Positions 52,701 to 57,653 of a stretch of DNA of 64,000 bases are shown in pieces (the stretch's first letter is position 1; each line of letters starts with the position of its first letter). The stretch spans positions 96,001 to 160,000 of the forward strand of contig NZ_DF976999.1 in NCBI RefSeq assembly GCF_001485475.2. The letters run 5' to 3'. Under the pieces are notes generated by a model. The model was not told the origin of the DNA. It saw only the letters and a program-made list of their open reading frames with translations, and did no database searches. The stretch is from Tepidanaerobacter syntrophicus (GTDB lineage Bacteria; Bacillota; Thermosediminibacteria; Thermosediminibacterales; Tepidanaerobacteraceae). Position numbers and translations under genes: made by a program.

Positions 52701-54263
52701 TTAAAGTTCCTCATGATTAATATTGTACTGCTTTATTTTATTTATCACGGTTGCATGAGTTACGCCAAGGGCCTTTGCAGCTTTTCTTATACTCTTATGC
52801 TGTTTTAAAGCTTCTACTATTGCAATCTTTTCAGTCTCTGCTACGATATCCTTTAGAGTCCTCTGACTTTTTGAGTTTATTACGGCATTGCTTTTTAAGT
52901 CATCATGACGAAATAATAAATGCTGAGGTTCAATTCTATTATCGCACAAGTTTATAGCCCTTTCTATAACATTAGACAATTCCCTTATATTTCCGGGCCA
53001 TTCGTATTTTATTAAAAGCTCCATAGCCTCATCGCTTATGCCTTCCACTTTTTTACCCATTTTGTATGAAATCTTTTTGATAAATGCGTGAACCAATATA
53101 GGAATATCTTCTTTTCTCTCTCGCAGCGGAGGTATAACAAGGGGAATTACATTTAAACGGTAGTACAGGTCATCTCGGAATTGGCCATTTTTCATGAGTT
53201 CTTCTAAATTCCTGTTTGTGGCTGCTATAATTCTTACATCCACCGGTATCTCCTCGTTTGCCCCTACTTGCCTGATTTTGTTTTCTTGAAGAACCCGAAG
53301 AAGTTTTACCTGTAAATGGGTTGAAAGTTCTCCTATTTCATCTAAAAACAGAGTGCCTTTGTCCGCATATTTAAACAAGCCCTGCTTTCCGCCTTTTTTC
53401 GCACCTGTAAAAGCCCCTTCTTCATATCCGAAAAGCTCGCTTTCCAGCAGTGCATCAGGCAGGGCTGCACAGTTTACCGCAACAAACGGTTTGTCTCTTC
53501 TGGGGCTTGCCATGTGAATCGATCTTGCAAAAAGTTCCTTGCCGGTGCCGCTTTCTCCCCGTATCAGCACAGTAGAATCGCTCTTTGCCACCATCATTGC
53601 AAGTTCCTTTGCCTTAGTAATAGCCTCGCTTTTTCCTAAAATTTCATCAAACGTAATCATAGGGGTCTGAGTAAAATCGTGAATAAGCTCCATTACAGTT
53701 TCTATATCCTTCAATGATGCAACTGCGCCTATCGGCTTGCCTTCTTCGTCGAGAATGGGCCGGCCTGATGTGATATAGTGGCTCTTGAGCTTTTCGGTGT
53801 TTATAATCATCTCTTCGTTGTCATAGCTTTCTCCTGTAACTATGGTTTTCAGCATGGGGATATCGGGTGATATAAGGTCAGCGATATTTTTTCCCATAGC
53901 GTCTTTTGCTTTAATCTTGAGGATTTTTTCTGCCGCCGGGTTAAATGTTGTAATAATTCCCTTATCATCAACAGCAATTATCCCTTCTCCTGCCGCATCC
54001 AGCACTGCTTTTATATGTCTTTCCCGCCTTTCATGGGGCAAAAGTTCAACCTTCTTTACTTCGAGCACATCTTCTTCGGCCTGAAGCTGAGTTATTAGAT
54101 CAGATAGCGGTATCCGGAGACTGGAGTCTATCTTTATGCATACTAAGCCCGGGCTCACTTCTAAAGCCTTCAGGTTTACATCATATCGATAGAGTATTCT
54201 TAAAATATCTAAAGCCATGCCAATTCTGTCTCTTGTGTATATTTGAAGTCTTATGCTGCTCAA
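52701..54263 (-). CDS. Sigma-54-dependent TyrR-like transcriptional activator (ACT-PAS-AAA-HTH)
   Basis: 520 residues from a TTG behind GGAGGTGGGAAG. The first ~75 residues form an ACT-like domain ([20 protein letters not shown]), next a PAS domain ([20 protein letters not shown]). The AAA+ core has [17 protein letters not shown], the sigma-54 contact GAFTGA and [11 protein letters not shown]. The C-terminus is a Fis-type HTH ([20 protein letters not shown]). It should sense an amino acid through ACT and activate the -24/-12 promoter of mgl. The longer ORF to 54491 crosses the neighbouring terminator. Confidence 0.92.
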
Positions 54264-54300
54264 CTTCCCACCTCCGTCTTTTATTATATCACAAATAGAA

Positions 54301-54339: not shown

Positions 54340-54648
54340 TTAATATCCGTTTTGGGCCGTATGATGGTTCTGGTAGCATTCGCTGCAGTATACGGGTCTA
54401 TCATTTCTGGGCTTAAAGGGAACTTGTGTGGTCGCTCCACAGTCGGCGCAAACTGCTTCATACATTTGTCTGTTCTGCTTTCTTTGGCCATTGCCGTTCA
54501 TTTTCTTTTTGCGTGCGTCGCGGCAGTCTTTGCATCTGATGGGTTCGTTCTCGAAACCCTTCTCTGCGTAAAATTCTTGTTCGCCTGCAGTGAAGACAAA
54601 TTCCTTGCCACACTCTTTACACACTAATGTTTTGTCCTGAAATGCCAT
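54340..54648 (-). CDS. Zinc-ribbon protein with four CxxC pairs
   Basis: 102 residues from ATG behind GAGGGG. It has two zinc ribbons: CKECGKEF with [11 protein letters not shown], and CADCG with CSEC. The [20 protein letters not shown] form is that of the zf-trcl/probable zinc-binding family of Firmicutes, of unknown function, in which the second ribbon often ends [14 protein letters not shown]. It probably binds RNA or a partner protein. An in-frame upstream extension of ~50 codons (to 54804) reads through a structured leader and lacks a ribosome site. Confidence 0.85.
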
Positions 54649-54679
54649 TAAAAAACCCCTCACTTTGAAAAGTTGTATT

Positions 54680-54800
54680 GGCATCTTAGCTGACCTGGTT
54701 TTTCCCCAAAACGCCGTATACTGCGAGTGGAACGCCACTCTGGGAGTCGTTTCGCCTACGGCCGTAGCATCGACTTTCAACCACAGACCTAAGTTATGCC
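54680..54800 (-). ncRNA. Structured 5' leader RNA of the zinc-ribbon gene (unassigned)
   Basis: A 121-nt element is closed by GGCAT/ATGCC and CTTAG/CTAAG, followed by TGGTT/AACCA. Inside are AGTCG/CGACT enclosing CTAC-GGCC-GTAG, and CCCA/TGGG enclosing the hairpin GAGTGG-CGTT-CCACTC. It begins at the predicted transcript start and ends ~30 nt before the gene. The GC content is well above its surroundings. A cis-regulatory RNA (riboswitch-like) is the first hypothesis; a leftover IS605/TnpB-type right end with an omega-RNA is the alternative. I do not recognise an Rfam family. Confidence 0.55.
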
Positions 54801-54809
54801 TCAAGCCTA

Positions 54810-54838
54810 ATTATAAACGCAATTCTTGAAAAAAGCAA
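54810..54838 (-). promoter_or_regulatory. Promoter of the leader RNA and zinc-ribbon gene
   Basis: TTGCTT (54833-54838), 17-bp spacer, TATAAT (54810-54815). The start point falls near 54803, next to the first paired base of the structured leader. Confidence 0.65.
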
Positions 54839-54870: not shown

Positions 54871-55317
54871 TTATTTTTTTGTGTCAATAAAAGCCCCGCC
54901 CCGCGAGGTTTTCCCGATAACTCCGTATCCTTTGAGAGCGCTTTTCATGCTATTTAAATTTTCAATATCATCTTTTAGTTTTAAGAACATCTTTTCAATA
55001 GAGCTTCGATTTTCATCATCAAGTTTTTTTATTTTTTTAAGCCATTCTCCTATAGTATTGTATAACTGCCTGATTTTAGGGTCTGAATGGTTGAGCATAT
55101 ACTCCCTCATAGCTGCGATATCGCCTTTAAAAAGCGCAGACAGGCGGCTGTCTGTAAGATCGATTTCACTTATAAGCTGCTGCCTGCCGCTCATGGCATT
55201 TAGCAAGTCTTCAGCATCGTCTTTTTGCAGTGCGCCGGAAATTTTCTCTGTGCTGCTATAAAGTTTTTTCATATAGCTTAATTTATCTTCAAGCAATTTC
55301 AATACATCTTTTTCCAT
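54871..55317 (-). CDS. FlgN-like flagellar export chaperone
   Basis: 148 residues, nearly all amphipathic helix (LLEDKLSYMKKLYSSTEKIS, LLNAMSGRQQLISEIDLTDS, IGEWLKKIKKLDDENRSSIE). Length, helical profile and its place after FliS fit a FlgN-type or FliT-like chaperone which keeps hook-filament junction or cap proteins unfolded before export. The exact partner cannot be read from sequence. Confidence 0.65.
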   Translation of the reverse strand: MEKDVLKLLEDKLSYMKKLYSSTEKISGALQKDDAEDLLNAMSGRQQLISEIDLTDSRLSALFKGDIAAMREYMLNHSDPKIRQLYNTIGEWLKKIKKLDDENRSSIEKMFLKLKDDIENLNSMKSALKGYGVIGKTSRGGAFIDTKK

Positions 55318-55347
55318 TGTATTTCTCCTGCTGCCTTTTTTGATAAA

Positions 55348-55728
55348 TCAGGCATTCTTTTTTAATCTAATGCAGGCTTCGCTCCATGTATCTTTTAAAT
55401 CTGTTAGCATTGACTCTACTGTATCGAGTATATTTACATCTTTCTTGATATTTGCTTCAATAAGCTGTCTATACAAAAAATCGTAGATTTTTACAAGGTC
55501 TTCTGACACTTCGTAGCTCATGTCAAGGCTTGCTTCAAGCTCGGCAATTATGTCCTCGGCTCTTGCAATATTGTAGTTGGCGCTCTCAATATCCTTTTCA
55601 TCCACGGCTTTTTTTGCAAGCCTTACAAATTTTATCGCTCCCTCAAACAGCATAATCATTAATCGTTCAGGAGAGGCTGACATTATGGAGTTATAACGGT
55701 ACTGTTGATAACCGTTGGCGTTTATCAT
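55348..55728 (-). CDS. fliS: Flagellar export chaperone FliS
   Basis: 126 residues. NGYQQYRYNSIMSASPERLM, IMLFEGAIKFVRLAKKAVDE and NYNIARAEDIIAELEASLD are the standard FliS pattern. It binds the C-terminus of flagellin and prevents early polymerisation. It lies directly after fliD, as usual. Confidence 0.95.
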   Translation of the reverse strand: MINANGYQQYRYNSIMSASPERLMIMLFEGAIKFVRLAKKAVDEKDIESANYNIARAEDIIAELEASLDMSYEVSEDLVKIYDFLYRQLIEANIKKDVNILDTVESMLTDLKDTWSEACIRLKKNA

Positions 55729-55759
55729 CTATAGACCCCCTTTGCATCTGCTATAAAAT

Positions 55760-57631
55760 CTAAGAGCTGCTGCCCGAATATGTTCCAAACTGCATACTTA
55801 TCCACATGCTCTGCTGGTTTGCATACTGGACGGCTTGTTCCATTGCGGTAAATTTGCTCCAGTAGCGATCTTCTGTCTGTTTCAGTTGTTCTTCTAATGC
55901 TGAAATACGGTCCTCTGTCTCGGTAATCTTTTTTCCAAGTACGCTGTCATCATATATCTGATATTCTCCGCCGCCGGCTTTTTGAGTAATATCATTTATA
56001 CCGCTCTTTAGTATATCATATACGCGGGTCGCAACTCCTTGGCTGCTGTAATTATCGCCTGAGCTGTTGAAAAGCTTTGTAATGCTGTCAGGATCTTGGG
56101 TGATAGCCGCTCGAAGTTTGTCCTCATCAACATATAGTTTGCCTTTTTCTTTCCAATTACTTGTGGTGATACCTATGGAAGAAAGAGAATTTAGACCTTT
56201 CGGCAGTCCTGCAACCGGTGTGGATACCGCCGAGCGAAGATTATTTACTATATTGTTTAATATCGAGTCAGATCTGAGGAGGCCGCTTTTCGCCTTTTCT
56301 TCCCACAGCTTTATCTCATCTTCACTCATGGCACTTCTTTGTTCTTGGGTAAGAGGAGTGTAATCTTTGTAGCGCTGCTCAGAAAGTTTTCCGTTTATTA
56401 AGTCGATGGTTTCGTTATAAAGGTCAACGTACTTTTTTATATTGTCTACTACGCTGTCCACATCATTTTCCAAATGAAAGGACGCGGTTTTGCCAACTTC
56501 CATGGTTTCTTTTAGGGTAAATCTCATACCTAAAGCAGTAAAATCATTTGTAGATTTTTCAACAATGGTGCCGTTTAAAACTATTCTGGCGTTTTCCCCT
56601 GAAGCCTCGGCTGCATTAAACCCGAGAGCCGTGAAAAATCCGCTGTCATCAGTTATTTCTACCTTTGCGCCAAGACTTGTTTCTTTTGATGATATTACAA
56701 GTTTGTCTGTTAGCGCATCGTAGCGTGCTGTAGCACCTAAATCCGCTGTTGTATTTATTTTATCAAGGATAGTCTGCAAGCTTGCATTAGAATCAAATTC
56801 AAAGGCTTTTCCGTTTATCTTAAAGGATATATTTGTATCTCCAATACTGCCTGATATCTGAGACTTTAGAGATGTGTTTAGATTTAGCGGGCTGTAAGCT
56901 GCGCCGTCGCTAAATCCGATCTTTGAAAGGGTTGTGTCATTTTCAACTGCATTTAAGGTTATCGGGACTTTGTTGTAGTTTTCTGCAGGTTGTAATGTAA
57001 GCTTATTATTCTGAATGTTTACCTGCACCCGCTTTATCCCGCTGATGGTATCTCCATTACTGTCGCCCTGCCAGCCGAAGGCTGTATTTATAGCCGCCTC
57101 CAGGTCTTGTGCCAGAGCCTTCATATCGTCGGCATTTGACGTGTCATATGTTCCGGCGTTTAGTTCAACAGTCTTTTTTACTCCATTTATTGTTACAGAA
57201 AATCTGCTGCCTTCTGTAATTTCTATCTGGCCGGAAAGCTCCTGTCCTGTTAATGGTTTTGCAAGGCCAGATGCGCTTTCAAGCTTTGCATAGCTTGCTA
57301 TCTGTTCAACTTTAACAGTATAATTTCCGGGAACGGCTGCGGCACCCGGCGCCACTGAAAAATACTTGCTAAAGTCTGCACCATCGTTCATTGTCCCTAC
57401 TGCTTTATATTTCAAATATGAACCTGCAAGCTTCATATTAAATGTGCTGTCGTAAAAGGACTTTAGCTTTAGGTTTATATCCCGGTAGTCTGATTTTTGC
57501 CATTCTAGAATTTGCTTTTGCTGGTAGAGTTTGTCGACTTTTGTCCTTTCAGCTTTCATCAGGTCTGATACAATTTGGTCTATGTCCATACCTGAGACCA
57601 AGCCGCCTATTCTCATTGAACTTGAGGCCAT
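55760..57631 (-). CDS. fliD: Flagellar hook-associated protein 2, filament cap FliD
   Basis: 623 residues from ATG behind GGAGGAGGTG. The N-terminal MRIGGLVSGMDIDQIVSDLM, RTKVDKLYQQKQILEWQKSD and the C-terminal region (GLNSLSSIGITTSNWKEKGK, LRAAITQDPDSITKLFNSSG) are FliD_N and FliD_C, with C-terminal heptads. FliD caps the growing filament. About 100 residues longer than many Firmicutes FliD, because of the central variable beta domain. Confidence 0.95.
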   Translation of the reverse strand: MASSSMRIGGLVSGMDIDQIVSDLMKAERTKVDKLYQQKQILEWQKSDYRDINLKLKSFYDSTFNMKLAGSYLKYKAVGTMNDGADFSKYFSVAPGAAAVPGNYTVKVEQIASYAKLESASGLAKPLTGQELSGQIEITEGSRFSVTINGVKKTVELNAGTYDTSNADDMKALAQDLEAAINTAFGWQGDSNGDTISGIKRVQVNIQNNKLTLQPAENYNKVPITLNAVENDTTLSKIGFSDGAAYSPLNLNTSLKSQISGSIGDTNISFKINGKAFEFDSNASLQTILDKINTTADLGATARYDALTDKLVISSKETSLGAKVEITDDSGFFTALGFNAAEASGENARIVLNGTIVEKSTNDFTALGMRFTLKETMEVGKTASFHLENDVDSVVDNIKKYVDLYNETIDLINGKLSEQRYKDYTPLTQEQRSAMSEDEIKLWEEKAKSGLLRSDSILNNIVNNLRSAVSTPVAGLPKGLNSLSSIGITTSNWKEKGKLYVDEDKLRAAITQDPDSITKLFNSSGDNYSSQGVATRVYDILKSGINDITQKAGGGEYQIYDDSVLGKKITETEDRISALEEQLKQTEDRYWSKFTAMEQAVQYANQQSMWISMQFGTYSGSSS

Positions 57632-57653
57632 TTTTCTCACCTCCTCCTAAGGC

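What the first reader, a model, noticed from the sequence alone, without database searches (positions are those of the whole stretch)
54649..54838. A 121-nt structured RNA at the start of the zinc-ribbon transcript
Six nested helices can be drawn by hand, closed by a two-part stem beginning at the predicted start site. The element is GC-rich amid AT-rich sequence and I cannot assign it to a known riboswitch class. It may sense a metal or other ligand to control a zinc-binding protein, or be a decayed TnpB/IS605-type right end.
Basis: partly seen in the sequence, partly recalled or inferred. Interest (0 to 1): 0.7.

Follow-up and report, generated by a model that had tools for sequence, protein, structure and literature searches.

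The report
Miniature raiA (ModT) noncoding RNA
The structured RNA is a half-size version of raiA (ModT), an abundant bacterial noncoding RNA whose exact job is still unknown; one order of heat-loving bacteria carries only this stripped-down form, which shows which half of the molecule evolution keeps.

Summary
The 121-nt structured RNA is real (window 54680-54800, minus strand) and is not an unassigned riboswitch. It is a shortened raiA motif RNA (Rfam RF03072, ModT). The match spans the model end to end at E = 7.5e-11 but scores 48 bits, below the curated cut-off of 101, so annotation misses it. The same short form (110-121 nt) occurs in 19 of 22 genomes of its order (Thermosediminibacterales). 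A pattern scan of 84,980 species genomes found it only in that order; other raiA RNAs in a 398-genome phylum sample are longer (165-308 nt; one partial match 145). Compared with published cryo-EM contacts, P1, the tight turn, P3, the A-rich bend and a weakened pseudoknot 1 are kept; P6-P8, pseudoknot 2 and the A57/A58 contact are gone in all 19. P4 and P5 show compensatory changes. The RNA has a SigA-type promoter and forms the leader of a zinc-protein gene; the same linkage, without terminator, follows 17 of 29 readable full-length raiA RNAs. Most likely it is still a trans-acting structured RNA, released from or co-made with the mRNA. Metal-riboswitch and IS605/TnpB-end readings are not supported.

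The parts
54810..54838 (-). SigA-type promoter TTGCTT (54838-54833), 17-nt spacer, TATAAT (54815-54810)
   Evidence: CTTGC...TATAAT kept upstream of short and most full-length relatives
54680..54800 (-). mini-raiA RNA, 121 nt
   Evidence: RF03072 model 1-209, 48.2 bits, E 7.5e-11; own model R1 E 1e-36 (the model was built from these sequences)
54796..54800 (-). P1a 5' strand GGCAU, pairs with 54684-54680 AUGCC
54789..54793 (-). P1b 5' strand CUUAG, pairs with 54689-54685 CUAAG
   Evidence: invariant
54779..54786 (-). P1c 5' strand CUGUGGUU, pairs with 54700-54690 AACCA-GGU-CAG (GGU is the J1b-1c side)
   Evidence: invariant except U-A/U-G at the end
54775..54778 (-). J1c-3a GAAA, part of the split GNRA-like turn of the cryo-EM structure
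   Evidence: mapped to G20-A23 of PMC11751092
54746..54774 (-). P3: P3a GUCG/CGAC, A-rich internal loop I3a-3b, P3b GCU/GGC, loop ACGGCCGUA
   Evidence: A44 A45 kept in 19/19 short forms
54757..54762 (-). pseudoknot 1 strand GCCGUA in the P3 loop, pairs with 54718-54713 UACGGC
   Evidence: 4-6 pairs in short forms against 7 in the published structure
54741..54745 (-). P4 5' strand UCCCA, pairs with 54708-54704 UGGGG
   Evidence: compensatory A-U/U-A and G-C/C-G next to invariant CCC/GGG
54725..54740 (-). P5 hairpin GAGUGG-CGUU-CCACUC
   Evidence: variable sequence, stem kept in relatives
54701..54703 (-). shortened J4-1c (AAA); the pseudoknot-2 bases C181/A182 are missing
   Evidence: CA absent in 19/19 short forms, present in 26/27 full-length
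54656..54661 (-). ribosome-binding site GAGGGG followed by a U-run
   Evidence: the AAAGNGAGGGG...ATG context also follows full-length raiA
54340..54648 (-). gene for a 102-aa zinc protein (zf_Tbcl + zf_Tbcl_2)
   Evidence: P0001; Pfam 3.9e-26 and 1.6e-22, TIGR04272 7e-23

Best explanation
It is a size-reduced raiA (ModT) RNA, fixed in the order Thermosediminibacterales. Shown: homology, own promoter-like sequence, retained P1-P3 module and a weakened possible pseudoknot 1, covarying P4/P5, loss of P6-P8, pseudoknot 2 and the A57/A58 contact. Inferred: it is transcribed from the SigA-type promoter as the 5' part of the zinc-protein mRNA, its compact fold protects it so that it accumulates as a stable RNA of about 120 nt, and it acts in trans in the same general growth-transition role as full-length raiA/ModT through the conserved P1/J1b-1c-I3a-3b face. 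The lost arms, which in the cryo-EM structure buttress pseudoknot 1, would be accessory. The zinc gene simply shares the promoter.
For: Rfam match end to end. 19 of 22 order members carry one short copy each, plus a contig-edge fragment in one more. Strict short-spacing pattern in 84,980 species genomes: 13 hits, all placed in this order by title or by contig identity with an order genome. Other raiA RNAs in a 398-genome sample are 165-308 nt, one partial match 145. Between families P1-P3 is 87% identical although third codon positions of the next gene are 49% and P4-P5 44%. Compensatory pairs. Three lost features are present in 25, 26 and 23 of 27 full-length forms and in 0 of 19 short forms; A44/A45 is kept in 26/27 and 19/19. 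Trans action and stability of full-length ModT: PMC11706538. Structure contacts: PMC11751092.
Against: No expression data; trans action of the short form is untested. The leader position leaves a cis role open. Pseudoknot 1 rests mostly on an invariant GCCG/CGGC, with only one position changing on both sides and a mismatch in several sequences. One order member (G014) has lost the core yet keeps promoter and gene, so the RNA is not essential in every lineage.
Confidence: 0.8

Rival explanations
1. Cis-acting leader (riboswitch or RNA thermometer) that controls the zinc-protein gene.
For: Direct leader position; near-constant 41-50 nt from RNA core to start codon in short forms and 41-47 nt in the zinc-linked full forms measured; ribosome site close by; thermophilic hosts.
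Against: No conserved terminator or ribosome-site-sequestering helix seen by inspection; in other lineages raiA RNA ends in its own terminator or is followed by other sequence; trans complementation excludes a cis role in C. difficile (PMC11706538).
Confidence: 0.12
2. A decaying raiA pseudogene kept only because its promoter drives the zinc gene.
For: Half the molecule is missing, pseudoknot 1 is weakened, and G014 has a ~75-nt remnant with promoter, P1-like stem and ribosome site but no core.
Against: P1-P3 core near-invariant across two families while third codon positions have diverged to 49% identity; compensatory changes in P4/P5. G014 shows what real decay looks like.
Confidence: 0.06
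3. Right end of a TnpB/IS605-type element (omega-RNA-like).
Against: Single copy, same place before the same gene throughout the order, strong raiA match.
Confidence: 0.01
4. Part of an N-terminally extended zinc protein (154-aa open frame).
For: The frame is open through the RNA in this genus (156-158 aa).
Against: Other order members have an open frame of only 105-116 aa; the ribosome site and the ATG at 54648 are conserved.
Confidence: 0.01

Closest known systems
raiA motif RNA / ModT (Rfam RF03072), full-length; C. acetobutylicum structures 9CXF and 9ELY, C. difficile ModT
   Same: P1 with GGU/CAG junction, GAAA turn, P3 with A-rich internal loop, possible P3-loop pseudoknot, P4/P5 in order; SigA-type promoter; one copy per genome
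   Different: 110-121 nt instead of about 165-308; no P6-P8, no pseudoknot-2 bases, no A57/A58 element; pseudoknot 1 4-6 pairs instead of 7; scores below the Rfam cut-off
raiA variant 1 (short P6 stem-loop, 32% of sequences per PMC11751092)
   Same: Also lacks the large P6-P8 domain
   Different: Variant 1 keeps a P6 stem; the short form has none and has also lost pseudoknot 2 and the P5-base A-minor element. Whether Soares et al. 2024 saw this form could not be checked (paper not held).

Membership tests
raiA motif RNA (RF03072) | Covariance model match at or above the curated gathering score (101.3 bits) | tested here: not met
   48.2 bits, E 7.5e-11; all order members 38.9-58.9 bits. Filed here as a derived, shortened homologue, not as a standard member.
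raiA motif RNA (RF03072) | Conserved P1 (GGUCUGUGGUU / CCAGGUCAG) with J1b-1c | tested here: met
   invariant in 19/19
raiA motif RNA (RF03072) | P3 with bent A-rich internal loop and GAAA turn | tested here: met
   19/19
raiA motif RNA (RF03072) | Pseudoknot 1 between P3 loop and pk-loop | tested here: inconclusive
   4-6 complementary bases in all; little covariation, some mismatches
raiA motif RNA (RF03072) | Pseudoknot 2 (C181/A182 with pk-loop) | tested here: not met
   bases absent in 19/19; present in 26/27 full-length
raiA motif RNA (RF03072) | P6 stem (variant 1) or P6-P8 domain (variant 2) | tested here: not met
   only about 4-6 nt between the pk-1 strand and P4
raiA motif RNA (RF03072) | Abundant, stable, acts in trans | not testable with these tools
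   needs RNA-seq and genetics
Metal-sensing riboswitch | Expression platform (terminator or hidden ribosome site) conserved with the aptamer | tested here: not met
   no such element in the spacer comparison, by inspection; ligand binding itself not testable here
IS605/TnpB right end | Link to tnpB/tnpA or repeated mobile copies | tested here: not met
   single copy, orthologous place in the order

The most novel reading that the evidence does not exclude
The P1-P3 module with a short pseudoknot is the self-sufficient functional core of raiA/ModT RNA, and about half of the published fold is dispensable; an entire order lives with a 110-121 nt version released from an mRNA leader.
Probability: 0.45. 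Interest if true: 0.65.

Novelty: new variant of a known kind. Interest (0 to 1): 0.5.

Why it matters
raiA/ModT is among the most conserved and abundant bacterial noncoding RNAs, its fold has been solved by several groups, and its molecular job is unknown. A natural deletion that removes P6-P8, pseudoknot 2 and the supports of pseudoknot 1, yet leaves P1-P3 nearly untouched over two bacterial families, points to the part that does the work and gives a small construct for pull-downs and structure. The genome of the window also lacks Spo0A and SpoIVA matches but keeps the RNA, while an order member with both genes has lost the RNA core, which suggests that the conserved role is not tied to sporulation. 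Annotation at the Rfam cut-off overlooks the whole clade.

Tried and rejected
Rfam at gathering score: nothing in the window. Folding energy z-scores: uninformative. The first covariation count on the plain MAFFT alignment blurred P4 and P1a by register shifts; redone segment by segment. Zinc protein as obligate RNA partner: rejected on co-occurrence, since zf_Tbcl is in 262 of 398 genomes and several raiA genomes lack it. A viral copy: none in viral contigs. The 2024 PNAS paper on raiA was not held.

Full report
Observation. On the minus strand the element runs from 54800 (GGCAU) to 54680 (AUGCC), exactly 121 nt, with TTGCTT-17-TATAAT just upstream. Thermodynamics alone does not mark it, and Rfam at its curated cut-offs finds nothing in the window.

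Identity. With a permissive threshold, Rfam aligns the element end to end to raiA RNA, RF03072, at E = 7.5e-11 and 48.2 bits, half the gathering score, because it is about 117 nt long against 209 model positions. The genome has a single copy. Searching with the Rfam family finds the same short form in 19 of the 22 genomes of the order (110-121 nt), and full-length forms in neighbouring families of the same class. A pattern made of the two most conserved blocks with short spacing gives 13 hits in one genome each of 84,980 species. Eleven are titled Thermosediminibacter, Thermosediminibacteraceae, Tepidanaerobacter, Tepidanaerobacteraceae, Fervidicola, Thermovorax or Thermoanaerobacterales MAGs; two 'Bacillota' MAG contigs have lengths identical to those of order members G009 and G021. 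A model built from the short forms also picks up a contig-edge fragment in a further family member. In a sample of 398 genomes of the phylum all other matches are 165-308 nt long, apart from one partial match of 145 nt.

Anatomy compared with the cryo-EM structure (PMC11751092; numbering checked by counting from U19 in aligned full-length loci). Kept: P1 with its GGU bulge, the GAAA turn, P3a/P3b, the A44/A45 loop. Pseudoknot 1 remains possible with 4-6 pairs (GCCGUA/UACGGC here) instead of 7. Lost in all 19: the GUAAGG element with A57/A58 (25/27 full forms have it), the J4-1c CA of pseudoknot 2 (26/27), the GCAUGG strand of the pk-loop (23/27) and P6-P8. P4 is supported by A-U/U-A and G-C/C-G exchanges between the two families and P5 by many exchanges. 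Between the two families the P1-P3 module is 87% identical, while P4-P5 is 44% and third codon positions of the first 40 codons of the next gene 49%. That points to purifying selection on the module.

Decay for comparison. One order member, G014 (99% complete), has the same promoter, a P1-like stem and the same ribosome site before the zinc gene, but only about 75 nt between them and no conserved core. This is what loss looks like, and it suggests that the intact short forms are not simply drifting.

Context. The next gene encodes a 102-aa protein with zf_Tbcl and zf_Tbcl_2 (CxxC-x17-CxxC) domains. It directly follows the RNA in the order members with a short form and in 17 of 29 readable full-length loci, with similar spacing, the same type of ribosome-site context and no terminator; in the others the RNA is followed by a terminator or by other sequence. 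The synteny quoted in the held literature mentions comFC and the raiA gene (PMC11706538). The protein is not restricted to raiA-bearing genomes (262 of 398), so it is not an obligate partner. In this genome the raiA (HPF) gene is about 44 kb away.

Function. Full-length ModT in C. difficile is abundant, stable, acts in trans and affects transition to stationary phase, sporulation and c-di-GMP; a cis riboswitch role was ruled out there (PMC11706538). It is reasonable, but inferred, that the short form does the same basic job. The host of the window has no Spo0A_C or SpoIVA match at 99.95% completeness while keeping the RNA, and G014 keeps both genes while losing the RNA core. This double dissociation, though from single genomes, argues that the conserved role is broader than sporulation.

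Verdict. Real, conserved, and a size-reduced variant of a known RNA family, overlooked at the standard threshold. Whether the short form was already seen is open, because the main 2024 PNAS paper was not available.

Noticed in passing
whole genome G000: The genome of the window has no Spo0A_C or SpoIVA match although its genus mates G001 and G002 have both: probably a recent loss of sporulation.
   Followed up: partly
L063 (G014:C43), the ~170 nt upstream of the zinc gene: A ~75-nt remnant with promoter, P1-like stem and ribosome site where order relatives have mini-raiA.
   Followed up: partly
L003-L009, L075, L077, L078, L080-L082, L084, L085, L087, L089: Full-length raiA RNA followed closely (about 40-50 nt) by a zf_Tbcl zinc-protein gene, a linkage not found mentioned in the held papers.
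   Followed up: partly
window 54757-54765: The P3 loop of this genome, ACGGCCGUA, contains a self-complementary CGGCCG, unlike its relatives; it could in principle allow loop-loop dimers.
   Followed up: no
window 54871-57640: The RNA lies directly behind a flagellar gene block (fliD, fliS and a small fliT/flgN-like gene on the same strand).
   Followed up: no
window 52701-54282: Downstream of the zinc gene is a sigma-54-dependent regulator on the same strand; in several relatives a gene for a lipoprotein-like transport component follows instead.
   Followed up: no
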